From Priapulus caudatus (lineage: Eukaryota > Priapulida > Priapulimorpha > Priapulimorphida > Priapulidae): 28,727 nucleotides of DNA. The notes beneath the pieces were generated by a model. It ran no database searches, had not been told where the DNA came from, and was given only the letters and a program-made list of their open reading frames with translations. The translations under genes and the position numbers were made by a program. Positions 6,401 to 23,992 of the stretch are shown piece by piece (positions within the stretch are counted from its first letter, which is position 1; the number at the start of each line of letters is the position of its first letter). The DNA lies in NCBI RefSeq assembly GCF_000485595.1, contig NW_014578753.1:1-28727 (forward strand), written 5' to 3'.

Positions 6401-6595
6401 AGCGCTCCGCTAAGATCTTAGCACTGCTAAGGAGCTCGCCGCTTAACAGTTGTTCCGCTAAAGTGCGGTAAAAAGCGAGCGACTTTAGCGAACGGAGATT
6501 CGTGAAACGCGTCCTCCGCTATTTAGCGGACAACTCGGGAGTTAGCGGAGGAGATAGCGGAAAATATAGCGAACGGAGCTTCGTGAAACGCGCCC
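6401..6595. repeat. Small palindrome-rich repeat next to the left TIR
   Basis: Rich in TCCGCTA and TAGCGGA words that pair with each other, for example a 7-base stem with a 2-base loop at 6515-6530. The sequence AGCGAACGGAG-A/C-TTCGTGAAACGCG occurs twice (about 6487 and 6569). The block ends where the TIR subrepeats begin. It resembles a small non-autonomous insertion, but I could not define matching ends or a target duplication. Confidence 0.5.
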
Positions 6596-6882
6596 CTGAT
6601 AACAGCAGGCGACTGCTAGCTTCCTGCTAAAACTCCCCGTATGCAGACCACCAACCGGTTTTATGAGGGCTGCATTATAGCAGCCCTGATAACAGCGGGC
6701 GACTGCTAACTTCCTGCTAAAACTCCCCCTATGCAAATCACCAACAGGGTTTTATGAGGGCTGCATTATAGCAGCCCTGATAACATCGCGCGACTGCTAA
6801 CTTCCTGCTAAAACAGACTGTTTCCTTGCCCCATGCAGTCACAAGATCAACGTTAAAAATGCTTGCTATGGAAACGATAAAC
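6596..6882 (-). repeat. Left terminal inverted repeat
   Basis: Holds about two and a half units of the ~90 bp subrepeat in reverse orientation relative to the right end (CTGATAACAG... AACTCCCC... CCAACCGGTTTTATGAGGGC). These are followed by an inner segment from about 6812 to 6882 that pairs with 18101-18172. The match ends at GATAAAC. A translated frame across these repeats (6542-6736, -) is not a gene. Confidence 0.8.
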
Positions 6883-6898
6883 AGCACGCGTAAAAAAC

Positions 6899-6904
6899 TT
6901 TATT
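6899..6904 (-). promoter_or_regulatory. Possible poly(A) signal for the leftward gene
   Basis: AATAAA on the - strand, just inside the left TIR and downstream of the last recognised exon of the leftward gene. Position and orientation fit, but the hexamer is short and could be chance. Confidence 0.35.
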
Positions 6905-7139
6905 GATTTTAAAAGCATATTTGTTTATAACCGCGAGAATATTGTGTACGATAAGTTGCTGAACTTGCATGAATTAAGTGGCAAAAGTGAGAACTGAAAC
7001 GTAATTTACAGTACGTACTATAAAAGCTCATATAAACCTCCTACATCTTCGTACTGCATATTTTTCTTACAGTTCATGGCCAAGTTGAGCACGCACACAC
7101 ACGCACACAAATGTATAGTACTGTATACTATAAACATAC

Positions 7140-7377
7140 TTCTTTGAATACGTTGAGTTCAACCAGCAAGAATGCCATACTGATCACATATCTGTTTTTG
7201 TTTTCACGTGATGTATGTCCATCTGTATGTGTAGTCTATCTCTCAGTTTGTCCTTATTGGTGACAAGTACTTCCAGAATCAGGTTTATTGTTAGGTTCGA
7301 GTCATGTGGATACTGGTTGACATCGATGAAGACATGGAGCCTAATACCTCCTTCAGTGTTTGCGTGGAACAGGCATC
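7140..7377 (-). CDS. PHDSN / RENKN exon of transposase-like gene
   Basis: Encodes LHVFIDVNQYPHDSNLTINL and LRDRLHIQMD, then, after a one-base frameshift near 7217, SRENKNRYVISMAFLLVELN ending VFKE before a GTATGT donor. The QMDN..RENKN block holds the likely second catalytic Asp. The incoming phase (1) matches the previous exon. No following exon was found in the ~250 bases before the TIR, so the C-terminal third of the protein is missing or unrecognisable. Confidence 0.82.
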
Positions 7378-7465
7378 CTTACTTTGTAAAAACGAAATAC
7401 ATAGTATTATTATCTAGTAATACAAGGTTACGTTTGTAGCTACGCATGGTCTGTATGAAACTCTT

Positions 7466-8237
7466 AAGCCTTGTCTATACGAAGTTTTTCTTATCCCGGG
7501 TTACACAGTCTCGGGTTAGCTTAATCCTAGTTAAGACATGCGCAGCGTCTATACGAGCACCACCCGCTCAATGCTTGAGCGGTTCTGACACGTAAGTATC
7601 GCATTGTATATACGCATCGATGTAAATACGCAGTTACTATTGCCGCATATCGCAGGGTTAAGGAACTATGCGCTATCTCAGGTTAACACCGTCTGTAGCG
7701 ACGCTATTCCGAGACAGATCTTAACTCGGGTTAGCTTAGCCCCCCTCACATCACGAGGTTAAACTAACCCGGGTTAAGGCTTAACCGTGGCTCTCTTAAC
7801 CTGAGATTAGCACGCGTGTAAATGCTTATACCGCGATAAAAATCCTCGTATAGACGAGACTTTACATCATCTACACGAAGAAATTTGTCTCGGCTTAAGC
7901 GTCTTGTTACATCGTCTACACGAGGAAATTTGTCTCGGCTTAAGCGTCTTATTACATCGTCTACACGAGGAAATTTGTCTCGGCTTAAGCGTCTATACGA
8001 GGTCTTAACTCGGGTTAAGCTAACCCAGGTTAAGCTAACCCGGGTTAAGCTTTAATCCGAGTTAGCTTCACCCCGCTCGATAAGGGGGTTATGCTAACCC
8101 GAGATAAGACTCGGGTAGACGCGCGCGAAATCGTTAACTCGAGTTAAGCGGTAGTCGCATACCGCAGTCAACACCGCCTCCCGCTAGCTGCCGTTAACTT
8201 AACTCGGGTCAAGACAAACTCCGTGTAGACGAGGCTT
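7466..8237. mobile_element. Nested non-autonomous inverted-repeat element (MITE-like)
   Basis: The two ends pair over about 37 bases (7466-7502 with 8201-8237, about 30 matches). The interior is packed with TTAACCCGGGTTA-type palindromes and GTCTAYACGAGG words, some in tandem. No coding potential. It lies in an intron of the leftward gene. No target duplication is clear. I cannot assign a superfamily. Confidence 0.7.
7862..7996. repeat. Three tandem copies of a 45 bp unit
   Basis: TTACATC followed by CTACACGAGGAAATTTGTC and CGGCTTAAGCGTC begins at 7862, 7907 and 7952, an exact 45-base period. The second and third copies are almost identical, and the first has two or three substitutions. The unit contains the same end-like words as the TIR of the surrounding element. 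Confidence 0.85.
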
Positions 8238-8252
8238 CTATATATTTCGTAC

Positions 8253-8422
8253 CTGTCAAATGTGTGCCCAGTTTGTATAAATTGCTGGTGACTTTGTCAT
8301 CTTGTGCAAAGTGTGGAATGTCCGTTTTTGATTGGTCCATTCCATCAATAATTAGGCAGTTTTAATCTGAATCATTTTGCCTTGCGCTGCTCCTTGCTCG
8401 ATGATAGTATTTTCTCATCCAG
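8253..8422 (-). CDS. DGMDQ exon of transposase-like gene
   Basis: Acceptor TTGTTTTAG, donor ACAG|GTACGA, 170 bases. Encodes RKYYHRARSSARQND, then a TAA stop at 8362-8364, then NCLIIDGMDQSKTDIPHF and NLYKLGTHLTG. IIDGMDQSKT is the most diagnostic motif of the family and probably contains the first catalytic Asp. The open frame on both sides of the stop and matching phases at both ends argue that the stop is a lesion, not an exon border. Confidence 0.85.
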
Positions 8423-9391
8423 CTAAAACAAATTTTTACTAGGTTTATTGTTGGAATACATTATGCATATATACCGATCACTAGATGCACACTTAGAATT
8501 ATTTTTTGCAGAATAATAAAATTGTATGCTGTACGTGTGTCACTGTTGCATATCAACAGACATTTACAATATAGCAAATGGCCTGCGCGTAACGAGTTCT
8601 TTTGTTGTGAAACAAGTTTGGTATCTAAACGTTGCTGCTGCGTTCCGCTGCTGCACCCTTAAACTTGACGTACGTCGTCTATATGCGTGGATACGCTATT
8701 TTTAAACGTGCGTTCACGCAATACAAATAATATTAGGGCAAGCCAGTCGAGGCTACCAGCCAAAATTGAAACTAGGTAGCAATTAAGCTTAGAGATAGTG
8801 AATATGGGGATTAAGTTATCCAATAACCTAGAGAACTGTGTTTTCTATAGCTACTCATGTAATGAAATAAACGTACCATAAATATCATATAGCACATCAT
8901 GTTATATGATATCTATGTAAACGTACACTGGGCCGTTCGTTACGCCAGAAATGCATGGCAGATTTCCGTTTTGTACTCCGCGTACAGACTGCATTTGATA
9001 TTGTATTAAAGTAGCGCGCGCCAAATTTTCGCAGTGTATACACGTTATTCCGCTCTCTCTATGCAGTCTGTACGCTACGAGTTGGCGCGCGCCAGTTTAA
9101 TACCATATCTAATTTTGCAGTCAGGTGTTATAGGTAGTGTTTCTTAATTGCCAATGACTCAGTTCTACATGTGAGATTGAGAAAGTGCAACAGTGTTAGT
9201 GCAGCAGTAAAGATACTATTTACTGTTTGCACGTTTTGACTCAAAAACAAACTGACTCAAAAGCAAATCTGCTTTTAAATGTATACCCAATCCCACGTAT
9301 ACTTTCAGTAGATCTACATGTACCGGTATTCTAGCAAGGAGGGTGCGAAGTGAGCGACAGGTCCACTATAGTCAAGTTTATATTTACTTAC
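8423..9391. other. Intron of the transposase-like gene
   Basis: AT-rich, with no open frame resembling the neighbouring exons. It contains the interleaved inverted repeats at 8980-9108. Confidence 0.55.
8980..9108. repeat. Two interleaved inverted repeats
   Basis: GCGTACAGACTGCAT (8980-8994) pairs perfectly with 9061-9075. A 27-base arm (8998-9024) with core GCGCGCGCCAA pairs with 9082-9108 at 24 of 27 positions. The order is A-B-A'-B', so both stems cannot form as simple nested hairpins on one strand. Confidence 0.8.
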
Positions 9392-9513
9392 TCCACTTGA
9401 AGCTTGTGTTGAGCTATTACTTCACCAAATGCTTGTCTCTGGTGCGTTGTGGCAGATGCTTGACAGTCAACCTTCAACTTCACGCAGGTATTGCATACAG
9501 CAAAAGTTGATGG
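9392..9513 (-). CDS. Zinc-ribbon-like exon of transposase-like gene
   Basis: Acceptor TTATTTCAG, strong donor GTAAGTA. It is 122 bases, open throughout, and begins PSTFAVCNTCVKLKVDC. The C-x2-C-x2-L-K arrangement is the recognisable Cys motif of the family, followed by a helical His/Gln-rich stretch ending QHKLQV. It leaves phase 2, which the exon at 8253-8422 accepts. Confidence 0.8.
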
Positions 9514-9665
9514 CTGAAATAATAGACATTGAAAAAAAGAGTATGTAGATTGTAGATTAATCACACTAAATACCGTAACACAAAGCTATCAACATACCAT
9601 AAGCTTTGACGATAAATTGGTATCAGCTTTAGATCAGCTTAGAAAGACTAGAAAGTTTTGATTAC

Positions 9666-9976
9666 CTTGCCAATCTTATACTGGGGAAAGTCTTTTTCCA
9701 TATATCTCTAGCAGATATTCATATGCGATGTGGTCCTTGATATTCTTCTGTTCCATCTCATCTTTGTACTTCTTCCACAAGCTCAGTTTTGTATAGCAGT
9801 AAGGCAGATAAATAGTATCATCATTTGGCATGTAATCACCCATCCTTTTAAAAGTTTTTGCCATCCACGCATTTGCTTTTGTTGTTTTCCTTCTGCATTT
9901 TCCCTTGCCAACGTTTTCATGAATTACGGTGACTAGTGGTGTGTCATTTCTTACCCTCCTCAAGCAGTCATCGTAT
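9666..9976 (-). CDS. Exon of transposase-like gene
   Basis: The acceptor GTCACAG ends at 9977 and the donor AAG|GTAATC begins at 9665. It encodes YDDCLRRVRNDT, then VIHENVGKGK and MGDYMPNDDTIYLPYCYTK, the conserved block upstream of the zinc ribbon in this family. The frame shifts by one base in the five-A run at 9693-9697. With that base discounted, the exon ends with a FPQYKIGK-like sequence, which is what relatives show, and in phase with the next exon. A homopolymer miscount is therefore a likely cause. Confidence 0.75.
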
Positions 9977-10100
9977 CTGTGACTTTAAACGCTGTGACTT
10001 TAAATGCTGTGCTTTAATGCTGTGCTTTTAAGCTTAAATGCTGTGCTTTAATGCTGCGCTTTAAATGCTTTAGACGCGTGACTTTAAATGCTGTGCTTTT
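9977..10100. repeat. Short tandem repeat filling an intron
   Basis: Repeats of a ~13-17 base unit around TTTAAATGCTGTGC with length variants. On the - strand the unit includes AAAGTCACAG, which is also the 3' splice site of the exon ending at 9976, so the array appears to have grown at an intron/exon border. Confidence 0.75.
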
Positions 10101-10102
10101 CG

Positions 10103-10310
10103 CAAAAAGCATGCGAACATAGTTTCTTGGCACACAGACAGAGTTGTGTGTTTAGAACCGGCTTGTCTAATTTCCAGTCATATGCTGCATTTGAGCAATC
10201 CTTTATAACAGTCACCAAGTGCTGTAACTGAGCTGCTTCAGAGTTATAGTGGACAGAAAGAGCTGCTTGAGAGAAAGCTGCATGATCATTATACGCTAGA
10301 ATAGTCAGCA
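10103..10310 (-). CDS. Upstream exon of transposase-like gene (tentative)
   Basis: An open - strand stretch encodes residues including NSEAAQLQHLVTVIKDC and LNTQLCLCAKKLCSHAFCEK. The Cys-rich end sits where this family usually has a short Cys motif before the R-Y-D-D segment. The start has not been fixed. The exon runs into the short tandem repeat at 9977-10100, which occupies the intron. Another - strand piece near 10509-10570 with Cys residues and a GTAATG donor could be an earlier exon, but support is weak. Confidence 0.45.
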
Positions 10311-10429
10311 GTTCTGACCGTTATGTGTTCATGCGCATTCTTGTACGCACCAGTTACAATAATACCTAACCAGTAAATAACCATGCAGTTCTAGATCTAT
10401 TGTTTGACGGCCAGTTTCGCCCCCGCTAT

Positions 10430-10911
10430 TTACGGGTTCTATGTAGCATCACAGGCACAATCTATTCAGTCAAGTTTTGAAAGCATTGTTTAAACAGCGA
10501 TCATTACCAGGCTGCTGACGCAGCCGATTCGGGTCATTCTCGCACCTGCAACAACTACTAGTGTAACGGGATTGCCGTTTCCGCTATTCACGAAGTGTGG
10601 AATGTTAGATGAGCTTTGTTTTTCTAAGTGGGTTGAATAAATCAAACAATGTCCGCCTTAATCCTTCCTTTTGAGACGAGCAAATTATCAAGCAACATCG
10701 GCAATTCTCTGTAGTTTTTTCCGGGGTGAAAGATGTACAATGGTTCACACGAAATCGGCTGCCTTATAATCCTTCTGCATAAGTAAAAATTGAATGGAAA
10801 GTTAGGCAAGCGAATATCACACCTAACAGGTGCGTTTTGCTAGGTAAAAATTGCTAAGATGCGTAGATCTGCATAAAAGGCTAGCCTGGAGATTGATCAC
10901 AAACATTCAAA
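10430..10911. promoter_or_regulatory. Divergent intergenic region of the element
   Basis: This lies between the most upstream leftward exon signals and the rightward start codon. It contains a TATA-like GCATAAAAGG at 10871-10880, about 32 bases before the ATG at 10912 and well placed for a short leader. No equally good leftward TATA box was found. Confidence 0.45.
10871..10880 (+). promoter_or_regulatory. TATA-like box of the ParB-methyltransferase gene
   Basis: GCATAAAAGG lies 32 bases upstream of an ATG in an A-rich start context (AAAATGA). The spacing fits a core promoter with a very short leader. Confidence 0.45.
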
Positions 10912-10996
10912 ATGACGCAGCCAAAGAAGTGGTACATGGAAGAGGAGGAACGCACAGGGAAACTGTTCATATGGCTACAGCACGCAGATAATAACG
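10912..10996 (+). CDS. First exon of the ParB-methyltransferase gene (probable)
   Basis: ATG at 10912, then MTQPKKWYMEEEERTGKLFI followed by WLQHADNN, and a good donor G|GTAAAC. The 85 bases leave phase 1. The start was chosen for its context, the upstream TATA-like box and the open frame up to a donor. No domain is recognised; it is an acidic and basic N-terminal stretch. Confidence 0.6.
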
Positions 10997-11190
10997 GTAA
11001 ACGTGTTTACAAACGAATTGTCTAATTGTCAAACGATCGCGACTTCCTCTGCGACCACACAGCTGTCTAAATTTTCCAGGCGGGAGGGGGGCATGATCCC
11101 GAACCACTCTAGCGCCGCATGCCTTCGGCACGCCTTCACTCAAATATCGTCCCCGTCTCCTAAAAGCTAGATCTATCCCTGTATAATTAT

Positions 11191-11258
11191 ATCAGGAGTG
11201 AATAGTAGAGTCTATTATTATTATTATTATTTTTATATCTCTATTATTCACTCCTGAT
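11191..11258. repeat. 20-base-arm hairpin with TCAGGAG ends
   Basis: ATCAGGAGTGAATAGTAGAG (11191-11210) pairs with 11239-11258 at 19 of 20 positions across a loop rich in TAT triplets. It lies in the first intron of the rightward gene. Confidence 0.8.
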
Positions 11259-11372
11259 TATATCCATCAAGAAGAAAGATATGTTAAGTCTCAGTTTGTC
11301 TGGTTTTAACAATGACATTTTCATTATTATTAACTTATGTATGTAAAATAGTTTTGCATGTGCCTGTTTTAG

Positions 11373-11523
11373 GACTAGCACACCGGTGTATAAACGAAAA
11401 AAGGGAGCCGTCCAGAATCTGATGTGACAGTTGTCCCAGTCATCAAAAAGAGGAAACGACTTGTGCCAAAGGAATTGATCCAAACACATATCATCCAGAA
11501 ATCAGTTAGAAGCAAACTTATAG
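11373..11523 (+). CDS. Second exon, basic N-terminal region (frame uncertain)
   Basis: Acceptor CTGTTTTAG, donor ATAG|GTAGAG. One frame gives STPVYKRKK. After the six-A run near 11398-11403 a second frame gives ESDVTVVPVIKKRKRLVPKE and IIQKSVRSKLI. A one-base miscount in the A run would join them. The KKRKR cluster could be a nuclear localisation signal. The phases to the exons on either side do not match as drawn, so a further exon or another indel is needed. Confidence 0.45.
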
Positions 11524-13302
11524 GTAGAGAAATTATTAGTGCGTGTGTATAATTCAGAGACTAGTCGTCACGTTACATATGAGTTGTTAAGTCATTCTAA
11601 CATTTAATTACTGATTTCAAATGTGTGATGTTTGTAATTCATGTAGCATTGTTGAATCATTGCATTAGTTAGGTGTCTTTTCTATTCCAAGGTACATTTA
11701 AAGGCCTTCTTTAGTGATATCTCTAAACTGTCAAATTTTTACAATTATTTGAAGCTAGTATCAACACGTAAATAACGAAAGCATTCGTATATTTTTTGGT
11801 TGCCTCTGTGATATTTAAAACACGTCTTGATGTTGGGTCTATGAATGTTGAAAATCATTTATTCTGCCAAACCGGCCACCAGGTGGGAAAACGGCCTGTG
11901 ACGTCAGGCTAGGTTCTCCCCGCGTTGCGCCGCACACAAAGCCTGCATCAGTGCATGAGCACAAAGCTATCCTCGGCTGTAACTTATATTGGGCATAAAC
12001 ATCCAACTGCCATATTAATCATCATGAGCATGATATATATATATATATACATATATGCATTGTAGACTTTACTACCGGATTAAACCACATTAATACTCAG
12101 ACAATAAAATCGGTTCCACCATATTTCCATATGGCTTTACTCAGCTCATTGCCATCTGCAGTGAACAATGTATACGCAATACGTTTTTGTTCTACTTCTG
12201 TTGTTGGCGACCCGGTTAGTTTCAGTTACAGCTGACCTCAGGGTTAAACACTACATGATATATGATTATTAACTCGTACTGTATACACTGAGTTTCTTAC
12301 GATACAAGTACTAAATGCACATTACACGTGAAATAACATTGTTACTATTATCATGTGCATAAATTCTACGTATTAAGTCCTGTCATAATTTCCACTACCG
12401 GTACGCTAAAACATTTACTATTGACTATTGTCAGCTTTGCTTTTCTTTAGTCAGGCCTACTGTACTGTAGTACTGAGGACCTCTTTAGAAAATTAGACAG
12501 TACTTGTAGAATGGGAAATCGACAGTTGCATTATCTGTTGGAAAAACTTAGCTATTTAGCTATTTAGCTTGCTACCGAAACAAAACATTTCATTATGTCA
12601 GGAGCGTATAATGTCAGTATACGCTCCTGATTATGTACACCTAGTACCTACAATGAAATACTGAGCTAAACTCACCATTCAGCAGTCTTCCTCTGCTGGT
12701 CGACGTTGCCTTGAACATTGGCAACGAACATGAACAAGGCATCACACGTTTCCTTGGCACGGTTGCCTTAAACTATGCCTGGGTAATCGTATGCTCCAAG
12801 AAACGTATTGCGAGGATTAGAATATCATTCCGTCCGTTGTATAAAACAAAATCGTCTGCACAGCCTGGTCGGCTAGCGTTAATCGTTGGCCAACGTTCAA
12901 ACATGTACGCAGCTGCATGGAATACAACTATCTCAACATGTTCAATTCATTGTCTATGTCTACTTCATTTCATTTTATCAATGCTGATGACTGCTCATCC
13001 GTATCGTACGAAACTGATATTAGTCTAGAGCGACTCTGAATCGGTGTCACATTGTACATTGTACAGGCTCCATTGTACCACGCTTGGCAACAGGTAAACA
13101 AGCGAGAGCTAGTGCTAGCCTGACGTCACCTACGTCATGCGCCAAAGTAGGTGGCGCCTTTGCGTTCCGCAAATCTTAACATTGTGTTCATCAAAAATGC
13201 TTTGTTCTCAATACACCCGAAAACCATTCAACCTGTAAATTTCTTAGTAGTTGTACAAAACATAGTTAATTTGATATATGTAACTATTTTTCATCACTAA
13301 AG
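11524..13302. other. Long intron or intergenic stretch
   Basis: AT-rich, with a (TA)n run at 12032-12050 and a hairpin at 12598-12630. A - strand piece near 12673-12745 has an ATG and a GTGAGT donor and might be an unrelated exon. A + frame at 12711-13028 shows no motif. A possible missing exon of the ParB-methyltransferase gene was not located here. Confidence 0.45.
12598..12630. repeat. 13-base perfect hairpin with TCAGGAG ends
   Basis: TCAGGAGCGTATA (12598-12610), a 7-base loop ATGTCAG, and the exact reverse complement at 12618-12630. It has the same terminal heptamer as the hairpin at 11191-11258. Confidence 0.85.
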
Positions 13303-13473
13303 GAGGCCTTTAAGATCAGTATTATTGCACTGAAGCTACAGAGGCAGTTGAGAAACATAGATGACGTGTTCCTGACGAGGCTAAAGGCTGACATGCAAGA
13401 GTTTCCAGATGAAGCATATCAGCCACTTGTAGCAACAGTTTCAGTATCGAACACTGAATTTAATGCTGCAGTT
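13303..13473 (+). CDS. ParB-like domain, first half
   Basis: The acceptor CACTAAAG precedes 13303 and the strong donor GTT|GTAAGT begins at 13474. It is 57 codons in phase 0, reading EAFKISIIALKLQRQLRNID, then LKADMQEFPDEAYQPLVATV. A helix leading to a (Y)QPLV strand is the ParB/sulfiredoxin-fold opening. It joins in phase to the exon at 13865. Confidence 0.75.
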
Positions 13474-13585
13474 GTAAGTTACATGCATAGTTTTTAAGTG
13501 ACCTCGCTGAATTACCGAGTGAAAGATAGCTTTATCTTGCCAGAGTTTAATAGTAGCAGTTAATATCAGCTAGCTGGCTGGCTAG

Positions 13586-13604
13586 AGCGGTGTGTGTGCG
13601 CGTG

Positions 13605-13640
<36 letters not shown>

Positions 13641-13660
13641 TGTGTGTGTGTGCATGCGAG
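13586..13660. repeat. (TGCG)n / (TG)n microsatellite
   Basis: About ten TGCG tetramers flanked by TG repeats in the intron between the two ParB-domain exons. Confidence 0.95.
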
Positions 13661-13864
13661 TGTGTTTGCTATGCTATACCACTGCTGTGATCTACTCCAA
13701 TCAGACATGTGAGTTTAGGTAACACGTTTGTCGCAACAAAGCAAATGGAAAAACCAGTTTAGATAGCAGTAAATAAATTACATAAACATTGATGAAACGA
13801 ATTGAAATGTATGTTATATTCAGTATCATTATTTGTGAAAACGTTTGCGATCCTATATTTGTAG

Positions 13865-14059
13865 TTCAATGGCTACAGCTATCAAGTGATTGGAGGCCAG
13901 CACCTGGTAACAGCGGCGAAAAACGCGGCTGATGGGTACAATTATAATAAACTATTCTGCGTGGTTTATTGAGCGTTGACATGTGAAGAGTCCATGTGGT
14001 TAGCCAGCAGACATAACCAGACCGGAGGGAATCGCCATAAAATGACGTGCCTTGACAAG
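13865..14059 (+). CDS. ParB-like domain, second half, with in-frame TGA
   Basis: Acceptor TTTGTAG, donor GACAAG|GTATTA, 65 codons in phase 0. Reads FNGYSYQVIGGQHLVTAAKN, then NKLFCVVY, a TGA at 13970-13972, then ALTCEESMWLASRHNQTGGN. Y-x-V-I-G-G-Q-H is the signature (GxHR-like) loop of ParB domains. E-x-LASRHN follows in the same family. Matching sequence on both sides of the TGA shows that the stop interrupts an exon. Confidence 0.8.
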
Positions 14060-14257
14060 GTATTATATAAATCTGAGCATCACATATGTAATGTATTAAA
14101 TTAGCCAACATTTCATTGATAAAGCAACAAAAAATCGTATAATAAGTACACGAGTATCACATACAGTAAATACACACAGTAGTAAATTTCAAGCTTGTAT
14201 GCAACAACTCGCAAACACCGTTTTAATACCTATATCATGTCATGTGTTATTTTTTAG

Positions 14258-14359
14258 GTTAGGTTCTGTCATACATGGCAAATACAACAGCGCACGTCAG
14301 GGGGACGAGACAGTTATTTAAGATGGAAGGAGTGCTGCCGAACAATACTCAATGAAAAG
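14258..14359 (+). CDS. Linker exon of the ParB-methyltransferase gene
   Basis: Acceptor TTTTTTAG, donor AAAAG|GTATGA, 34 codons in phase 0. It begins VRFCHTWQIQQRTSGG and ends RWKECCRTILNEK. It joins without phase change to exons on both sides. No separate domain is recognised. Confidence 0.7.
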
Positions 14360-14604
14360 GTATGAAATGAACTATATAATGACGTTTGGTACAACAATTG
14401 GCTCATTTGGGTACATTCATAGTTAGTCATAGTAGACCACTATGTGTTATATTCTGTGCTGTAAAAATTCTTAGCGGTTCCTGCTAATTTTCAAATAATG
14501 ATCAAGTAAATACCTGCGAAATATTGGAATATGTTAGCCGTCAATTTTAATAAACAAATTCAACGCTGATTGTTTCAATATTCCATTATTTGTTATATAG
14601 AAAG

Positions 14605-14889
14605 ACATGTTATGCGTTAGACATCATGACAAGCCTTGCGTGCATGTCGAACGAAACATTTCAAGTTTTCGACGAGGCCATGGAAATGTACGAAGAAGGG
14701 AAACTGAGCGGTCAGAAGGAGGTAACTGGCTTGGAGACCAAGAGGGACATCACGTTCAGCACGTTTAGATTTGTTCTGGAATTGGATGAAGCTGCGATGA
14801 GAGACATCTGGCAAGACTAATTATTAAAGAATGGCGAAATGACCATCGAGCAGATGACGAAAGAAACAGAAACAATAAAGAAGCTGCAG
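14605..14889 (+). CDS. Helical exon between ParB and methyltransferase domains, with in-frame TAA
   Basis: The acceptor is AGAAAG at 14599-14604, chosen over TATAG at 14600 because it keeps phase 0. The donor is CTGCAG|GTTTGT. It reads TCYALDIMTSLACMSNETFQ, then FRFVLELDEAAMRDIWQD, TAA at 14818-14820, then LLKNGEMTIEQMTKETETIK. The acidic, helix-like character continues past the stop. CAA to TAA is one possible origin. Confidence 0.72.
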
Positions 14890-15097
14890 GTTTGTTGTTT
14901 AAATACTAGAAATTGACTGAAATTTAAGGCTTTTATTTGTAGATTTTGATTAGTCTGTTGATGTGTGTTTTAGTTTCCTCCATGTCTACCTTGTTTCAGT
15001 CTGTATATATCTTTTTTTAAACTCACATCACTTAAAATCGTTTAGAACATGCGTTTATACACGTATTGTGAAGAGTTGTTGTGCTGTATTTTAACAG

Positions 15098-15427
15098 ATA
15101 ATTCAGGTGAAGTTGTTACAACTACTGAAGATACGATCGTGGGAGGAAGCATGCAGAGACTTCCCTACTCTCACCAGTAGAGACTCTCTGTTTGCTTTCC
15201 GGGACTGCTCATTCAGAAATAAAATCCCAGAAGAGTTTTCCCGCTACGTGATGTCTGCAACGACAAAACAATGGGGTTCACCATCCTGCGGCGAGGATGT
15301 AATATCATTCAACAATGCTACGGGGTTCGTACTCGAAGGTGACGCAACTGATGTTGGGACTGCCCAAATAGTTGCAACGTTCAGCTCATTTGAAGGAGCA
15401 GCGCTTGTTATCGTCGACCCGCCAGAT
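15098..15427 (+). CDS. Methyltransferase exon with motif IV (DPP)
   Basis: Acceptor TTTTAACAG, donor GAT|GTATCA, 110 codons in phase 0. It includes DFPTLTSRDSLFAFRDCSF and ends FSSFEGAALVIVDPPD. A hydrophobic strand followed by DPP is motif IV of amino-methyltransferases. The fourth residue, normally Tyr, Phe or Trp, is Asp at the exon border (GAT where TAT would give Tyr). If no splicing occurs, the frame stops at 15440, and an AATAAA near 15520 could then end a short transcript. Confidence 0.75.
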
Positions 15428-15760
15428 GTATCATATATCTGAAAATTACTATTTTACAGTGGAAAATGACAGTTGATGTACACAATTCATAGAGTTTTTC
15501 GTGTTTTTATTTTGGTGTGAATAAAGCAGGAAACTGAGCTTTGATTATTAACTCCGTGTGACGTGGTACAAATTATGTTCTCAGATATCTCAAGAGAAAG
15601 AAACCTGTGACTCTAGGAATCGTGCTATCGATCGTGTATTTTTGTTGTACTAGAATAGTACCTAGGATTGCTTTGTAGCTTGTTTATTTTGTGACAATCT
15701 CCAAGACGCGAGCACTGTGGGGTCGCCCTCTTTTGTAAACCGCTTTGTTTGTTTTTTCAG

Positions 15761-15950
15761 AACTGGACTACCTTGGAATTGTCAAAATTCTGTCTCGCTG
15801 TGTGATCAATGAATTTGGACGCGGAAGTACGGGCGTTCACCTTAGTGGTCATATGCCAATCGGCTCATGAGGAGGTCATCAAAATGCTGGAGGAAGATGG
15901 ATTTGCGACAGAGATCGCATACGCATATTACAGCAGACGGCTAGTAAAAG
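15761..15950 (+). CDS. Methyltransferase exon after motif IV, with in-frame TGA
   Basis: Acceptor GTTTTTTCAG, donor AAAAG|GTGAGA, 190 bases leaving phase 1. It begins NWTTLELSKFCLAV, TGA at 15803-15805, then SMNLDAEVRAFTLVVICQSA and EVIKMLEEDGFATEIAYAYY. The W-x3-EL helix, a hydrophobic strand ending in C, and L-x3-GF follow motif IV in beta-class methylases. CGA to TGA is a possible origin of the stop. Confidence 0.75.
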
Positions 15951-16332
15951 GTGAGATGTTCTGACAGCAAAACATGTTGTAAAGCTATCGATATTGAAAT
16001 GTACTTTAAAGCAAACAAGAAATTTTTTGTATGAGATATATATATATATGGGCGATTTTTCTGCTAATACGTACCTTTAAGCAATGTCATCCTCTGTTTC
16101 AATATAAGGGTTTATACAATATTGATTGCAACGATTCGGCAAGGTGCAATTAAAGTTGTGTTAATAACAAAATATAGATAGCAGCAGCTATAATACAGCT
16201 TTGAACCGGCTCTTTAGGTAGTCCATAACAAATTCTATAATTTGTTCATTGTGTAGAGCAAGACCGGCAGTAACAAACCTAACCCCGAATACAAACAATA
16301 GAAACTTAATCGCTATTTTATTTTATTTTAAG

Positions 16333-16583
16333 GAAAGCAAAACCTTACGAATATGCTCCAGCATATAGTGGTTGGCCAGTGGCATACAGGGGAGCAGGAG
16401 AGGTGCAGCAACCTTGTTCAGCCCCATAGAAATGTCTTTCTAACAGACATGGTAGAGAGACCGGAGAGAGACGAAGACGGAGACATTGTCAACGCAGAAC
16501 AGCGACCAGAAAACTTTTACGCCGCAATAATAGAAGCGTATAGCATGAGAACGACACCGTGATCGATGCTTGCTCTGGGACAG
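16333..16583 (+). CDS. Methyltransferase exon with motif X-like block and motif I
   Basis: Acceptor ATTTTAAG; it accepts phase 1. Encodes NMLQHIVVGQWHTGEQERC, RNVFLTDMVERPERDEDGDI and NAEQRPENFYAAIIEAYS. After a one-base shift near 16559 it reads VIDACSGTG up to the donor ACAG|GTATAT. N-x-E-Q-R-P-x6-I-I-x-A-Y-S followed by V-I-D-x-C-S-G-T-G matches the C-terminal QKP... VLDxFxGTG block (motif X to motif I, the SAM-binding loop). Confidence 0.8.
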
Positions 16584-16835
16584 GTATATAAGTACATTAC
16601 TCACCATATATTGTTATAAAGAAGGGAAGGAAGAAACGAAGTTATTTTGTCTAATACAAGAGTAAATTATCATTTGGCTTTCGTTTACGTAATTGTGCAT
16701 GATACTTCTTTTAAAAGACGATCATGTGAAATCTCAATTCCCAATTAATAGAAATTTTGTTTTAAGGGTGCAATGTTACAATACATTTTTCAGAAAAAAA
16801 CATCTTTTAATAAATAGTGAAATCTATTTTTACAG

Positions 16836-16956
16836 GTACAGGTACAGGATAACAGTCGCAATGAGATTGACGAAAAATTGTGTTGCAGTAGAAAACGACA
16901 TCAAGCAGGTCGAAGCCATCAAGAAGAGACTAATACGCCTACAGTGTGACTTGTAA
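16836..16956 (+). CDS. Last exon of the ParB-methyltransferase gene
   Basis: Three alternative AG acceptors lie in the repeated GTACAG at 16833-16847. The reading ends RITVAMRLTKNCVAVENDIK followed by QVEAIKKRLIRLQCDL and TAA at 16954-16956. ...A-x-R-L-x-K-N-x-V-A-V-E-x-D is the strand-helix-strand that follows motif I, where an acidic residue contacts the SAM ribose. The frame needs an incoming phase 2 while the previous exon offers phase 1 in the motif I frame, so another one-base error or lesion is likely. Confidence 0.72.
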
Positions 16957-18100
16957 ATGCTGTTTTGGGGAAAAATTGTAGTCACGCTAATTTTGCCTAT
17001 TTGGAACCCATTTTTAACATTAATCAGAGGAAAACTTTATATATTTTTAACAGTGATTTTGTATATAAAAAGTTGTATCTAAATAGTTTATTGTATTTTT
17101 ATGTTTTTGTGTATGTCGCTCATTGTGTAAATAGTGCATAAAACTAGTCCCTTTTAAACGTTTGCGAACAAAAATATCTCTGTCTTATGAAGGTTATACT
17201 TGGACTAGTAAGGCATTGCATTTCAAGTGTTTAGATATAAAAATTATTATTATCGGTATTGCTAATAATTATAAGCTGTGATTAATTTCAACCTGTATAC
17301 GTAGTAGTTTTTCTGAATAAGTCATACAATAACAATGCTTAGTACATTTATCCGTCTCTCAAGTATGTAATACATAAGCTATGATTGAAACTTTTAGGCG
17401 AATATTAACGTTTACTACATTGGTATAAATAGTTTACTATATTTTCATGTTTTTGCGTATGTTGCTCATTATGTAAATATAGTGCATAAAACTAGTCTTT
17501 TTTAAACGTTTGCGAACAAAAAGATCTGTCTTAAAGGACCAGGGTCGTCATTTGCGGTTAACTAAATTGTGTAAGTTATGATTTTTGACCGCATGATGGA
17601 GCCACTGTGCAGTTTTTAAATACACCGCTGTCAGACGATGGCGCTCTACTGCGCAACGTTATACTTGGACTAGTAATGCATTGCATTTCAAGTGTTTGCA
17701 TAAAAAATTATTATTACCGGTATTGCTAATAAGCTGTGATTTCAACCTGTACACGTAGTATAGTTTTTCTGAATAAGCCACACAGTAATAATTCTTAGTA
17801 CATGTAACCGTGTCTCAAGTGTGTATAATACATAATCTATGATTTAAACTTTTAAGCGAATTTTAACTTTTACTACATTAGTATATTGAAGCATGTTTAA
17901 CATTGATTTTGTGACTGGTGCAAGGAAATATAGTACGTCAAAAAATTAGATTTTCACAATAAAGTAGTGTCACAATATTTATCTATTTGATTATACTGGC
18001 ATGCGGCTTTAATAAGCAGCTTCAAATGTTATGAAGTATATCATTAATCAACGATTCTATCACGACCTTAGTCTATTCCCAAACTTAGCAGTCGCGCAAT
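16957..18100. repeat. 3' region with a ~346 bp direct duplication
   Basis: The sequence starting AAATAGTTTAYTRTATTTT at 17081 repeats from 17427. The second copy (to about 17885) contains an extra block at about 17533-17657. No gene is seen. An AATAAA at 17958-17963 could serve the rightward gene. Confidence 0.7.
17533..17657. mobile_element. ~125 bp insertion in the second duplicate copy
   Basis: The two flanking copies read straight through this point (CTGTCTTA then GTTATACTTGG). The extra block starts AAAGGACCAGGGTCGTC and ends CTACTGCGCAAC. It is short and GC-richer than its surroundings, as expected of a small SINE or MITE. I found no clear terminal repeats. Confidence 0.5.
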
Positions 18101-18553
18101 GTTTATCGTTTCCATAGCAAGCATTTTTAGCGTTGATCTTGTGACTGCATGATGCAAGGAAACAGTCTGTTTGACTTGGCAGTCGTTGTTATCAGGGTTG
18201 CTATAATGCAGCCCTCATAAAAACCGGTTGGTGGTTTGCATACGGGGAGTTTTAGCAGGAAATTAGCAGTCGCGCGATGTTATCAGAGCTGCTATAATGC
18301 AGCCCTCATAAAAACCGGTTGGTGGTTTGCATACGGGGAGTTTTAGCAGAAATTAGCAGTCGCCCGCGGTTATCAGGGCTGCTATAATGCAGCCCATAAA
18401 AACGCGTTGGTGGTTGCATACGGGGAGTTTTAGCAAGAATTAGCAGTCGCCCGCTGTTATCAAGGGCTGCTATAATGCAGCCCTCATAAAAACCGGTTGG
18501 TGGTCTGGCATACGGGAGTTTAGCAAGAAGTTGCAGTTGCTCGCTGTTATCAG
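18101..18553 (+). repeat. Right terminal inverted repeat
   Basis: The inner part, 18101-18172, is the reverse complement of the left TIR inner part. The outer part, 18189-18553, is four tandem units with starts at 18189, 18280, 18370 and 18457. Each unit contains GGGCTGCTATAATGCAGCCC or a close variant (a 7-base stem with loop TATAAT) and AACCGGTTGGTGG. A - strand frame at 18306-18572 is only translated repeat. Confidence 0.8.
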
Positions 18554-19250
18554 AAATGGATTCTAAATTCATGGTGTTAAAGCAATGTCTTATAGCAGGT
18601 GTAGGGCCCGTATACCAGCTAAATTATAAGTAAAATAGTCACGCATAGCTTTTTGAAAAGCTCGAAACTTTACTTCTGCTCGATTCTAAAATTCTTCTCA
18701 CCCATAGCTTGTATATAAAATTACAGCAACGTAAAAGTAGTTACGCCTGTTATCTGGCAGAAATTCTCATTTCCAAGAATTCGAAAGTATTCCAATGGTG
18801 TTATATGCACAAACGCACACATACACTGTCATCCACATGCTGTAATTTACGTGCTGTACCTGTTCAATGTTGCACAATAATGATGAACTGAATAATATGC
18901 GATCAGTGATCATAATAATGCGCCCAGGTACTGATTAAAGTGAAATTAGGCCCCAGTTGATTTTAATGACTCTTTTGTAAATTTCACAGATAAAAAAACA
19001 GCCAACCGAAAATGAAACAGATGAACACAGATCCATACGCTACAATAAATTATACATTATCATACTCATTCCTCATATATCATACCTCATTATCATATCG
19101 CGGAACAATATTTTCCTCGGCTGACGCCTCGGAAACATTGTTACTCGGGGAGACAATCGGCAATGTCACCGTACAGGCCAGGTCGTCAATTTTTACAGTG
19201 ACACGCATTGCGGCATGTTGACATTAACCCAAATTTCCCAGGAGAAAATT
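18554..19250. other. Right flank of the element, shared with a later copy
   Basis: No gene is recognised. It is nearly collinear with 26196-26890 apart from single-base gaps. It may include the worn 5' part of the LINE fragment that follows. Confidence 0.5.
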
Positions 19251-19755
19251 ACAATATGCCTACAAATGCAAACCTACACGATATATATACACTGCACTAC
19301 GATATGACACACTAAACTGAAAGCCCACATGTTCAAGATCGGGCAAGTGATAGTCCCTATGCGACTGTGGCCTTGCCAATGAGACCGTTGAACACAAGTT
19401 ATTACATTGTCACGACTCAGGGTTAGCAGGGAGAAGATGACTGACACGATCGAACTGGGTATGTGAAGATCCAACACAACCTCAAGCCATCGACAATTGA
19501 CATTGCCACCCTTACTGGGGAAAACAGGAATCTAACACCAGAGATGGATGCCACCATCAAACAGGCCCTCTCCAGATTCCTGTCTGAGTCCATCCCAGTA
19601 ATCTAGCCACAGACACTCCGTTGTTACAAATTTAAAAAACAACAACAACCAATTACTATATGAGGAAACACTGGTAGCAAACGATACAAAGAGGGTATAC
19701 ATTGTGACCATGACCTCGTGAAGCAGGAGGATAAACGAATAACAACAACAACAAA
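19250..19755 (+). mobile_element. Non-LTR retrotransposon 3' fragment, copy 1
   Basis: This is the C-terminal end of a LINE ORF2 with worn frame. The Cys/His knuckle region is frame-shifted in this copy but clear in copy 3 (C-x-C ... H-x4-C). It ends TLTGENRNLTPEMDATIKQA then SRFLSESIPVI and TAG at 19604-19606, followed by a ~150 base 3' UTR ending in an (ACA)n tail at 19737-19755. The knuckle after the reverse transcriptase/RNase H region is typical of Jockey/I/R1-like elements. No reverse transcriptase domain is present. Confidence 0.7.
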
Positions 19756-20577
19756 TACACCATATGTATATAATGCCATTGTATTTATTAAGTAAGTAAA
19801 AACTAACTGCCGGTAAAGCATTTTAAGTGCAGACCCAATGAATTTGTACAGTATCGTGGCCTAGATGACTATCACAACCCCAGCTATCGCATCCTGGCTG
19901 TAGAAGAAAAAAAGAGGTAGCGACGATCATTGCCCCAGCCATTAGTGAAGGCTTTAATTTCCATTTGGGCCACTGTAGTACAGACCTATCTTGTGCATGG
20001 CCGTCGCAGATTTATACAAAATTTATCTGGTAATTCTGTGTTGCACAGTCGAACGATGAGGCAGAGCCGAATGCGTTGGAGCGAGAGGGACAGCTGCGGT
20101 TCGTTTCCCACGTTCCCGCTCCCTCGCAGAAAGAAGTAAGCTTCCACTGCGGCATCGCTCGTTACCCCATCGTTTGTAAACTTGTTGTTTATTGCTGCAT
20201 CACTTTTGGCACAGAGAGCGGTAAGCTGGCACTACACATCACGACAGTACCTTGTTGCGCGGACCTAACATGATGCTGAATTAGATGAGCGAGATGATGA
20301 TCGTTGAGTGATACTGTCGTGTTAACCACATACGTCTCGTGTTGTTCGCATGATCTCACATGCTTTTCGCGTGTGCGCATGTGGAGGCAGCCCTCATCCG
20401 GAACTGCCGGAACTGCCGGAACTGCTGGGGAAATATACGAGTGAGACAATGAAAGAGCAAAGCGCCGAGGCAACGACTTTGCTAGGCCTGTAGGCACCAC
20501 GTGTGTGTAAAATGATTTGATATATACATGAGTTATTCAACCATTTACCATTAAATAATTTTTGTTAAACCTTTCAG
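19756..20577. other. GC-richer block upstream of the PR/SET exons
   Basis: Contains CGG-AACTGC triplicate words at 20398-20425 and several purine-rich words. It could be the promoter or 5' part of the PRDM-like gene. No reliable exon was found: a - strand frame at 20189-20500 and a + frame ending near 20490 both break in the two other copies. An earlier PR-domain exon must exist but is not recognised here. Confidence 0.4.
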
Positions 20578-20747
20578 TATTTAAAGGATATATATCCATG
20601 ACTGACTGCATCATTTTTTATTACGTTATTAATGGTAACAAGACCATTTCACTTCAAATAGACATCGAGAATAAGTGCAATTGGATGTGTCTCGTTCAGC
20701 CTGCAACTTGTTCAGATGAACAGAATATCATGGAATTGCAGATGAAG
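20578..20747 (+). CDS. PR/SET domain exon A
   Basis: Acceptor CCTTTCAG, donor AAG|GTATAC. Encodes ISMTDCIIFYYVINGNKT and NKCNWMCLVQPATCSDEQNI. The N-W-M and E-Q-N anchors are characteristic of PR domains. Copies recur at 25081-25248 and 28240-28401 with indels. Confidence 0.8.
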
Positions 20748-21211
20748 GTATACATTTATGAATTGTATACATAAATGTAAATGCTCTATTTTGCTGAGAT
20801 TACTGACAATATTTAAGCATGGATTATGTTATGAGACAAAACATGAATTAATGTAAGCTCATACTGATCATTATACTCATGGAAATATAATGAGAATTAT
20901 ACACGTGACCAGAAAAAAGACCGATTAGGAAAATGTGAGAAACATGAATTTTATTTAATAAAGATAATAAATTTTAGTTCTGCCTTGTGCCTATATATAT
21001 CCACTATACACACATTATTTAAACATTTGACGATATGTAACTTTCTGAAAGCCTTGGATACATATTAATGTCGATAAGGAAACTTAGAGCACTATAAGAA
21101 CTTCAATTGACACTAGAGCAGCATGTGTGGTCCTGCACCATAGAGGCTGCAGTATTTCCATGCTAAATTACTTAGCCAGTAGATTTGAATGTATTTATTC
21201 TCTCAATACAG

Positions 21212-21317
21212 GATGACATATTCTATATAGCCATACGAGACATCTCCGCAGGAGCGCAGTTGAAGGTTTGGTATGCACCTGCATATGCTGGAAAGCTCCA
21301 GAAATCACCAAACCCAG
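21212..21317 (+). CDS. PR/SET domain exon B
   Basis: Acceptor AATACAG, donor CCAG|GTACTG, 106 bases leaving phase 1. Encodes DDIFYIAIRDISAGAQLKVW followed by YAPAYAGKL. The I-x-x-G-x-x-L-x-V-W-Y block closes the PR domain. A second copy lies at 25726-25835. Confidence 0.82.
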
Positions 21318-21482
21318 GTACTGTTTACTTATGATTATTGGTTAACTAGTTAGAAGACCCCTCCAATTCTTAAAGTTTAACTGGCTTTAGTGGATCATGT
21401 ATCAATCTATGATTTATCTTACATGTTACTGCATTTCTATTTAGGTACAGATTTGTTTATTTTACATTTTTTGTTTCTGCAG

Positions 21483-21836
21483 AACCATTACCTTTGACAT
21501 TGCCAGATACCAGAAAGATACCTAAGAGTGCAAATACTGGTAAGTAAAATGTGACAGCAGTAGCTATAAAAGATGTATTTTCTACCGTATACGTTAAAGA
21601 ATGTATAGACTCAATATGGCTGTTAAGTAGACATAGGTTTTCCATTATGTGTATGGTTAAAATTCATTTATAATACGTATTTATTTAATTCACATTTTAT
21701 ATATAAATGTGGATCGTGTAATCATTTCAGTGAAGAAAGCCCCACGCCCGAAATCTCATCTTCATCAGTTCAACATTCACTGCAAGAAATGTAATGTGGT
21801 TTCTCCAACAAGGCCTGATTTTGTTGCTCACCTCAG
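21483..21836 (+). CDS. Two post-SET exons (21483-21539 and 21731-21836)
   Basis: The first is 57 bases (EPLPLTLPDTRKIPKSANTG), between TTTCTGCAG and GGTAAGT. The second is 106 bases between ATTTCAG and CTCAG|GTGTT and encodes FNIHCKKCNVVSPTRPDFVA followed by HL. That is a C-x2-C-x12-H start of a zinc finger, as expected after a PRDM SET domain. Splice phases match. Confidence 0.7.
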
Positions 21837-22018
21837 GTGTTACGAGCAATTTTTAATCATACAAGGATAATAATAGTATAGTAATGGTATTCTACTTGAT
21901 TGTTTACAAAGGAACACGCCTACACGGTAGTTTTATATTTGGCTTCTGAGTTTCAATCTGAATTACTGCAACATTTTATGTTTTACTCAAACACTAATCG
22001 AACTATTTTATGTAACAG

Positions 22019-23382
22019 AAGAACCCTGAGGTTGATGAATGCTCTGAACATCCATCTGCAGCGGATACAGAATTGGATAACTCTCCAGCAGTGAGCGAAG
22101 AGGCAAAACCGACTGACCCCTAACACCTGAGCAAAGTAACTCTACTGTTGATAGCTCTGAAGCTCCCTCAACTAGTTATATTCCAAGGTCCAGGCGCAGA
22201 AACGTGAAACCAAAACGGTTCTTCGACGAAGACACGTAACGTTTCGAGCGGAGTGATTCTGCAAACTTTACTCCGGTGCTCTCAATGTGTGACCTCGACG
22301 ACAAAGGCGTCAACGAAGTAGGAGTAATCTCAGAAGTTAAGGATAGAAAAGTAATGGACGAGGAAGGTGAGAAGAACGACTCTACTGAAGAACTCGTACC
22401 AAACTCAGGACGCCTCGGTGATAACACGGCGGATGTGAATTGGACGTGTAACATCTGTGATGCAACAATGAGACCCAGGACCAGCTGCGAGTGCACATCT
22501 TCGATAATCACGCCGTGGAATTCACCTGTGCCGACGGCCAGCTCACGTTCCTATGCCAGGAGAAGTTGCAGAACCATCTGTGCGAGGTCAGCGCCAGTTC
22601 GGGGTCGTTCTTCTGCGCCGACTGCCCGAAGACGTTTGCGAATCAGCGGCTGCTCAATTGCCACGACGCGTCGGCCGCGTACTACTGCGAGACGTGCCAC
22701 GCGTGTTTCGCGACGAGACCCGCGATGACGGACCACTCCTGCCGCTGTGAAGACGGCCAGGCTTTTCGCTGCGAGATCTGCGGCGATCGCTTCGTGAACG
22801 AGCTCTACCAGCTGCGCCACCTGGCGGCGACGCACGAGCGGAAGTACGCATGCGCCACCTGCGAGAAGACGTTCGTTCTCGAGAAGCGGTTGACGGTGCA
22901 CGTGGTCGTATGCGAGGGCCTGCGCTCGATCGCGCAGAACGCGGCCGCGCAGTACCGCCGCTGCCTGCAGATATTCACGGACGGGACGGCGTTCGAGCGG
23001 CACGCGTCCTCGCACACGCACCCGCACGAGTGCGCGCGCTGCTGCCGCCGATTCGCGAAGTCTCTCAGCCAGTTGCTGCACGCGTGACAGCGGCGCGGGC
23101 GCGGCGGGGGAGGCAGCGTCGCGTGCGGGCGCGTTTTCGACGACGCTTCGAAGCTGGAGCGTCGCGCCCGTGCACGAGTGTACACCGTTCGCGTGCGTGT
23201 ACTGCCGTCACGTGTTTGCGCGCAAGGACCTGCTGCTGCGGTACGCGTGCGCGGCGTCGGGCACGGCGGCGCGCGTGTACCGCATCCAGGGCCGCGAGTA
23301 CTTCGTCGAGCCGCGTGTCTGCGAGACGTGCAGCGTCTCGTTCACGAGAAAGAGCGTGCTCGGCATCCACGCGAAGACGCAT
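22019..23382 (+). CDS. Linker and C2H2 zinc-finger array, frame-shifted
   Basis: An acidic linker (VDECSEHPSAADTELDNSPA) and a basic patch (PRSRRRNVKPKRF) precede fingers. These start WTCNICDATM... (finger split by a shift near 22472), FFCADCPKTF, YYCETCHACF, FRCEICGDRFVNELYQLRHL, YACATCEKTF, HECARCCRRF, a frame-shifted ACGRVFDDASKLE, FACVYCRHVFARKDLLLR and RVCETCSVSFTRKS. Several have atypical last His/Cys spacing. GC content and CpG are far above the neighbouring introns. Confidence 0.75.
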
Positions 23383-23984: not shown

Positions 23985-23992
23985 AGACCAAT

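What the first reader, a model, noticed from the sequence alone, without database searches (positions are those of the whole stretch)
6596..18553. A eukaryotic TIR transposon that carries a ParB-DNA methyltransferase fusion beside a transposase-like gene
Seen: matching inverted ends about 12 kb apart enclose two divergent spliced genes, one with DGMDQ and RENKN motifs, the other with IGGQH, DPP and VIDACSGTG motifs in that order. Known: ParB plus PF01555 methylase fusions occur in bacteria and phages, and beta-class enzymes place motif IV before motif I. Inference: an animal mobile element captured a self-modification enzyme that could mark its own DNA with N6-methyladenine or N4-methylcytosine, to guide transposase binding, silencing or escape from it. 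I do not know a named superfamily with this pair.
Basis: partly seen in the sequence, partly recalled or inferred. Interest (0 to 1): 0.92.

Follow-up and report, generated by a model that had tools for sequence, protein, structure and literature searches.

The report
Animal jumping gene carrying a methylase
In an animal genome, probably that of a marine priapulid worm, an old family of DNA transposons carries a worn-out gene resembling a bacterial DNA-modifying enzyme beside its transposase-like gene; similar pairings are known from seaweeds, so the animal version is a new variant rather than a new kind.

Summary
The inverted ends and two divergent spliced genes are real and recur in this 385-Mb genome: methylase-like exons lie on 8 contigs, 7 of them within 1.2 kb of an inverted-repeat array; of 11 contigs examined, 4 hold both genes.

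Corrections. (1) The ~91-bp repeats are subterminal arrays with a palindrome; the true terminal repeat is a 46-47 bp sequence further out. The window's right terminus is 18802; its left terminus is missing. (2) This copy is dead: three in-frame stops, two frame breaks, a truncated transposase. (3) Sibling copies in frame pass PF01555 (41-45 bits, cut-off 26.7), but the ParB part has no profile support. (4) Catalytic motif IV is DPP[DE] or DPSE here and DKPQ in a sea-cucumber homologue, not (D/N/S)PP(Y/F/W), so methylation is doubtful.

A ParB-like/methyltransferase gene opposite a transposase is in print for a brown-algal Sola1 transposon, citing green and red algal cases. Here the partner is a DUF7869 gene and the host an animal. 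Likely role: an accessory protein acting on the element's own arrays. Verdict: new variant of a known kind.

The parts
6596..6814 (+). left subterminal array, about 2.4 units of ~91 bp; inverted relative to the right array
   Evidence: 62 matches to 6596-6890 in the host genome
6815..6890 (+). inner inverted repeat shared with the stretch just inside the right array
   Evidence: (arms 6800-6890 / 18093-18183, 88%)
7137..7378 (-). transposase-like gene, DUF7869 domain (positions 15-93 of 192 only), with RENKN motif
   Evidence: PF25273 44.4 and 26.6 bits on two pieces, cut-off 26
8251..8361 (-). transposase-like gene, piece with DGMDQ motif
   Evidence: recurs in L017, L018, L022
9391..9513 (-). 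transposase-like gene, piece T2
   Evidence: recurs in L009, L017, L022, L028
9682..9984 (-). transposase-like gene, piece T1
   Evidence: recurs in L009, L015, L017, L018, L022, L028
10912..10999 (+). ParB-like/methylase gene, probable first exon A
   Evidence: start resembles that of the sea-cucumber homologue P0002 (by eye); no copy in fetched loci
11415..11522 (+). ParB-like/methylase gene, possible exon B, basic (limits uncertain)
   Evidence: no copy in fetched loci
13303..13473 (+). ParB-like/methylase gene, exon C (N-terminal part of the ParB-like region)
   Evidence: aligned with P0002; no copy in fetched loci
13865..14059 (+). exon D: ParB-like core, IGGQH and WLASRHN; one in-frame stop
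14258..14359 (+). exon E
   Evidence: 85% identical in L020
14602..14889 (+). exon F; one in-frame stop
15098..15427 (+). exon G, ends in the motif IV region VIVDPPD
15761..15949 (+). exon H; one in-frame stop
16332..16585 (+). exon I, with SAM-binding motif I VIDACSGTG; one frame break in this copy
16849..16956 (+). exon J, C-terminal exon; frame break at its start in this copy
18093..18183 (-). inner inverted repeat, right copy
18195..18553 (-). right subterminal array, 4 units of ~91 bp, with palindrome GGGCTGC-N6-GCAGCCC at 18376 and 18464
18554..18802 (+). right terminal region ending in the true 46-47 bp terminal inverted repeat
   Evidence: 27 full or partial matches in the host genome

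Best explanation
The window holds a decayed copy of a multi-copy TIR DNA transposon family of an animal, probably a priapulid. A full element would have a 46-47 bp terminal inverted repeat, end-specific spacers (249 bp right, about 550-630 bp left), inverted subterminal arrays of ~91-bp units carrying a 20-bp palindrome, a DUF7869 transposase-like gene reading toward the left end, and a ParB-like/beta-class aminomethyltransferase-like gene reading toward the right end. Shown: anatomy, recurrence, homology of the C-terminal SAM-binding half, decay. Inferred: the transposase-like protein binds the ends and moves the element; the ParB-like protein is an accessory that recognises the element's own arrays and marked them, or helped assembly or control at the ends. 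Because motif IV is eroded, binding or SAM-dependent control without efficient methylation is about as likely as self-methylation.
For: Arms 92% complementary. 62 array matches in the host genome, which I grouped into 33 clusters on 23 contigs. Methylase-like exons: 31 matches on 8 contigs; 7 of the 8 lie 200-1147 bp from an array, while positions within 1.5 kb of an array make up 0.029% of the genome. The same 7 carry the right-end region over 245 or more of its 249 bp. In the window plus the 10 contigs fetched, in the stretches held: both genes on 4, methylase only on 2, transposase only on 2, neither on 3. PF01555 2e-10 and 1.5e-11 on two sibling copies. Sea-cucumber homologue colinear over 512 columns, E 7.2e-37, its C-terminal part nearest DpnA and CcrM among solved structures (E 7e-4 to 8e-4). 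Palindrome perfect in 29 of 52 near-full units.
Against: No target-site duplication found: the one pair with both termini (C688:121764-131239, a rearranged copy) shows none. No copy with all exons open was seen; the transposase match stops at position 93 of 192. Motif IV is DPPD, DPPE or DPSE in three copies and DKPQ in P0002. No ParB profile match. Selection signal weak: pooled pN/pS 0.58 (5 loci) and 0.62 (6 loci), single dN/dS 0.09 to 1.40. C1575 has the methylase exons without an array in the 3.8 kb read. No protein-array binding shown.
Confidence: 0.62

Rival explanations
1. Accessory protein without methylation: the methyltransferase half has lost catalysis and the protein is a DNA-binding (possibly SAM-sensing) factor for the arrays, used for end pairing or repression.
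For: Motif IV lacks the aromatic residue in the three copies of the family that show it and is DKPQDW in the sea cucumber, while motif I is kept in both. Palindromic arrays at both ends.
Against: A W stands at the sixth position in both (DPPENW/DPPDNW, DKPQDW), so a shifted but working site is not excluded. Binding not shown.
Confidence: 0.4
2. Passenger: the methylase-like gene was captured by an ancestral element and is carried without a role.
For: No copy with all exons open was seen; two fetched contigs with arrays carry only the transposase in the stretch held; 16 of the 20 DUF7869 matches lie on contigs with neither array nor methylase match (the counts are lower bounds).
Against: Same divergent arrangement of both genes on 4 contigs; colinear homologue in an echinoderm; a similar pairing in algae (PMC12477816).
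Confidence: 0.2
3. Contamination or assembly artefact joining a bacterial gene to an animal repeat.
For: The window is noisy: its right third holds repeated blocks 91-92% alike, differing largely by small indels (by eye).
Against: About ten exons split by introns, two junctions kept in siblings, copies on 8 contigs, an 88% match in a Priapulus caudatus gene model.
Confidence: 0.02
4. Two unrelated decayed elements nested by chance rather than one composite transposon.
For: Nested and rearranged copies occur (C688).
Against: Both genes and arrays together on 4 contigs; 7 of 8 methylase loci adjacent to the same right end.
Confidence: 0.05

Closest known systems
Sola1-1_Ec32 of Ectocarpus with ParB-like + N4/N6 DNA methyltransferase accessory gene (PMC12477816; passage read, abstract)
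   Same: Large DNA transposon; gene on the strand opposite the transposase; ParB-like plus 4mC/6mA-type methyltransferase in one protein; authors suggest it may bind and modify its own transposon.
   Different: Brown alga, 21.5 kb, Sola1 transposase, 1104-aa protein. Here an animal, about 12.2 kb preserved, DUF7869-type gene. The sequences were not compared.
ParB-methylase proteins of green and red algal transposons (Iyer, Abhiman and Aravind 2011; Petroll et al. 2025)
   Same: Cited in PMC12477816 for similar proteins in algal transposons.
   Different: Neither paper is held; known here only through that citation.
N4CMT of bdelloid rotifers (PMC8885841; passages read)
   Same: Animal gene with a PF01555 permuted methyltransferase domain, related to bacterial enzymes.
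   Different: N4CMT is a host gene with a chromodomain and SPPY motif; the paper says it has no eukaryotic homologs. The present gene lies in a transposon, shows no chromodomain match and no canonical motif IV.
Uncharacterized protein of Apostichopus japonicus (P0002)
   Same: Colinear homologue over 512 columns, PF01555 36.9 bits.
   Different: 28% identical; motif IV DKPQ; genomic context not available here.

Membership tests
TIR DNA transposon | terminal inverted repeats shared by dispersed copies | tested here: met
   47-bp terminus at right ends of 4 fetched loci and the window, and inverted at left ends of 2. Genome search with 18554-18802: 27 matches, of which 10 span it nearly whole, 11 only its last ~46 bp (left ends) and 6 other parts. 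In the window only the right terminus is present.
TIR DNA transposon | target-site duplication | tested here: inconclusive
   One pair with both termini, C688:121764-131239, shows none, but that copy is rearranged; no other complete pair was available.
TIR DNA transposon | intact transposase (for an autonomous copy) | tested here: not met
   Only positions 15-93 of 192 of DUF7869 found in the window; the 4 DUF7869 matches on array-bearing contigs are all partial.
DUF7869 (PF25273) proteins | profile match above the curated cut-off | tested here: met
   44.4 and 26.6 bits on two exon pieces, cut-off 26. That DUF7869 proteins are transposases is recalled, not tested.
N6_N4_Mtase (PF01555), beta class | profile match above cut-off | tested here: met
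   Two sibling copies 41.4 and 45.1 bits, cut-off 26.7; the window copy reaches at most 24.8 and is below.
N6_N4_Mtase (PF01555), beta class | motif IV before motif I | tested here: met
   DPP[DE] at the end of exon G, DACSGTG in exon I.
N6_N4_Mtase (PF01555), beta class | catalytic (D/N/S)PP(Y/F/W) | tested here: not met
   DPPD, DPPE, DPSE in three copies; DKPQ in P0002. Usual motif forms as in PMC8885841. So not filed as a working methylase.
ParB-like nuclease / ParB_N (PF02195) | profile match | tested here: not met
   No PF02195 match; best is DUF6551 at E 0.0074.
ParB-like nuclease / ParB_N (PF02195) | G-x-H core motif within the fold | tested here: inconclusive
   IGG-x-H and WL-x-x-RHN conserved between the family and P0002; that this is the ParB pattern is recalled. 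The P0002 model was unusable, pLDDT 37.5.
Algal ParB-methylase transposon accessory genes | Sola1-type transposase partner | not testable with these tools
   No Sola1 profile or sequence at hand.

The most novel reading that the evidence does not exclude
A lineage of animal DNA transposons, spread over at least ecdysozoans and echinoderms, carries its own bacterial-type ParB-like DNA aminomethyltransferase that acts on palindromic subterminal arrays, so that the element writes or reads a private mark (6mA or 4mC) on its own ends. It would be convergent with, or inherited alongside, the algal cases.
Probability: 0.3. Interest if true: 0.85.

Novelty: new variant of a known kind. Interest (0 to 1): 0.58.

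Why it matters
A transposon-borne DNA methyltransferase-like gene is on record for algae; here it is tied to dispersed ends and a second gene in an animal genome, with a colinear echinoderm homologue. It points to a possible source of the disputed amino-methyl marks (6mA, 4mC) in animals, and suggests that the rotifer N4CMT is not the only animal gene with this domain. It gives a simple test: native-DNA kinetics at the 91-bp arrays. The eroded catalytic motif is a caution against reading every such gene as a working methylase.

Tried and rejected
Led nowhere: protein search with the window's own spliced translation (7871 candidates, none at E <= 1e-3) and with two exons (none); viral-contig scans with both genes (4 and 13 stretches matched a pattern, none confirmed); phage searches with the window gene (none); solved-structure searches with the window copy (only chance-level) and with the ParB-like region of P0002 (none), while a sibling copy gave only weak DpnA/CcrM matches (E 0.011 to 0.021); structure prediction of P0002 (mean pLDDT 37.5, not used); search for a ParB_N protein in one fetched plasmid record as a yardstick (0 of 1); three phage/plasmid methylases fetched as possible ParB fusions are annotated at only about 245-250 codons. 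A search of the host genome with P0002 found only two exons of the window. A 75-aa open frame in the left terminal spacer of L028 was rejected as coding because its counterparts in L017, L018 and L027 have stops. Papers not held. Literature searches: (titles and abstract starts seen); none of the listed titles or abstract starts named an animal case, which is no proof that none is in print, since most subscription papers are not held.

Not answered by the busy machine: whole-genome searches for the transposase pieces, PF01555 and the left-end region of L028. Those counts are missing. The homologue search that found P0001 and P0002 scored only the 7999 best candidates, so other animal homologues are not excluded.
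Full report
What was checked. The arms 6659-6788 and 18184-18313 are 92% complementary over 130 nt. The transposase-like gene on the minus strand matches DUF7869 (PF25273) at 44.4 and 26.6 bits against a cut-off of 26, but only positions 15-93 of 192. The plus-strand gene can be followed over about ten exons from 10912 to 16956; exons A, B and C had no copy in the fetched loci, so their limits rest on the window and, for C, on the alignment with P0002.

Host. The window is a whole contig of a 385-Mb assembly in 2952 contigs. The closest public protein is a Priapulus caudatus gene model, P0001 (200 aa), 88% identical over 36% of the query and at best 91% identical to any copy found in this genome. 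The host is therefore probably a priapulid; the species is not settled.

Recurrence. The left end finds 62 matches in the host genome, grouped by me into 33 clusters on 23 contigs. The methylase-like protein finds 31 matches on 8 contigs: C1650 (the window), C850, C688, C231, C143, C801, C570 and, at 45% identity, C1575. In 7 of 8 an array lies 200-1147 bp away; positions within 1.5 kb of an array make up 0.029% of the genome. C1575 is a badly damaged copy of the same gene, and no array was found in the 3.8 kb read. In the window plus the 10 contigs fetched, in the stretches held, both genes are present on 4 (C1650, C143, C688, C570), the methylase alone on 2 (C801, C850), the transposase alone on 2 (C209, C631) and neither on 3 (C91, C1541, C796). 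DUF7869 has 20 matches in the genome, 4 of them on array-bearing contigs (C1650, C209, C2133, C2453); the other 16 lie on contigs without array or methylase match. All these counts are lower bounds by the tool's own statement. The pairing seems to belong to this family, not to DUF7869 genes at large.

True ends. Sequence beyond the right array is shared with 6 fetched loci and in 4 of them ends at window 18802-18803. The outermost 47 bp recur at right ends of 4 fetched loci and, inverted, at left ends of 2. A genome search with 18554-18802 gave 27 matches: by my count 10 span it nearly whole, 11 cover only its last ~46 bp (left ends) and 6 cover other parts. In L028 the left terminus lies 569 bp outside its array; setting side by side, other left ends lie about 550-630 bp away (C2453, C2113, C631, C191, C796) and farther at C209 and C1541. 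The window has no such terminus on its left; its left flank resembles, among the ends compared, only a different repeat at C1541. The ~91-bp units are thus subterminal. Of 52 near-full units from 15 loci (window included), 29 carry a perfect 7-bp-arm palindrome; the exact pattern GGGCTGC-N6-GCAGCCC occurs 6 times in the window and averaged 0 in 200 base-composition shuffles.

State of the copies. The window's methylase-like gene has one in-frame stop in each of exons D, F and H, and frame breaks within exon I and at the start of exon J. C143 and C688 have lost a similar middle stretch (window 10577 to 15847 and 10561 to 15899), joining transposase-side sequence to the 3' part of the methylase gene, as expected of non-autonomous derivatives. 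No copy with all exons open was seen. Exon comparisons with the window give pooled pN/pS 0.58 for the methylase (5 loci) and 0.62 for the transposase (6 loci), with single dN/dS values from 0.09 to 1.40; the alignments come from a protein search, which favours conserved stretches, so this is weak evidence of past selection.

What the plus-strand gene is. The window translation alone is weak: PF01555 E 0.017 to 2.4e-5 depending on how the broken exons were joined, below the cut-off. Two sibling copies read in frame are clear: 2e-10 (C231) and 1.5e-11 (C688), 41.4 and 45.1 bits against 26.7, with CcrM the best NCBIfam match, far below that model's own cut-off. A sea-cucumber protein of 769 aa, P0002, is colinear over 512 columns with E 7.2e-37, has PF01555 at 36.9 bits, phage methyltransferase families down to 5.8e-11, and DpnA and CcrM as nearest solved structures (E 7e-4 to 8e-4). 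The order motif IV then motif I fits the beta class.

Motif IV is DPPD in the window, DPPE in C231, DPSE in C850 and DKPQ in P0002; known enzymes have SPPY, DPPY, NPPY, DPPF or DPPW (PMC8885841, passages). And no ParB profile matched: only DUF6551 at E 0.0074, with no PHROGs match to the region. The ParB-like label rests on the conserved pattern IGG-x-H followed by WL-x-x-RHN, which I recognise from recall, and on the architecture reported from algae.

Prior knowledge. Ectocarpus Sola1-1_Ec32 carries, opposite its transposase, a 1104-aa protein with a ParB-like and a 4mC/6mA-type methyltransferase domain; the authors cite green and red algal cases and suggest that such proteins bind and modify their own transposon (PMC12477816, passage read, references). 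The cited sources were not held. The animal element is therefore best called a new variant: different host kingdom, different transposase-like partner. Whether the proteins are of one descent was not tested.

How it may work. The simplest account is that the DUF7869 protein moves the element and the ParB-like/methylase protein acts on the palindromic arrays at both ends, marking or bridging them. No binding, methylation or movement has been shown, and no target-site duplication was found in the one complete, rearranged pair.

Noticed in passing
window 18554-28727: Overlapping near-copies of one stretch (18554-21063 again at 26197-28725, 91%; 19477-21484 again at 23996-26006, 92%), differing largely by small indels (by eye); looks like unpolished tandem copies or unmerged haplotypes.
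   Followed up: partly
window 22461-23087: Open frame of 208 aa with C2H2 zinc-finger-like repeats (by eye).
   Followed up: no
window 23926-23985: Interstitial run of CCCTAA telomere-like repeats near the junction of two of the repeated blocks (by eye).
   Followed up: no
window 6463-6593 and L025 from 3284 on: Another repeat, with a unit like TAGCGAACGGAGCTTCGTGAAACGCGC, abuts the array in two unrelated loci at about 67% identity; it may be a frequent insertion partner or an alternative end.
   Followed up: partly
G000 C2133:28161-34235: Right end of a copy appears split by about 5.8 kb of other DNA, with a 3-base overlap of the two query parts.
   Followed up: no
G000 C1006:26551, C1871:17877, C433:225987: DUF7869 matches in open frames of 759, 469 and 499 aa without stops inside: other, apparently less decayed DUF7869 genes in the same genome.
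   Followed up: no
L018 and L015: Two copies (C688, C143) have lost almost the same middle stretch (window about 10570 to 15850-15900), suggesting recurrent or shared internal deletion.
   Followed up: no
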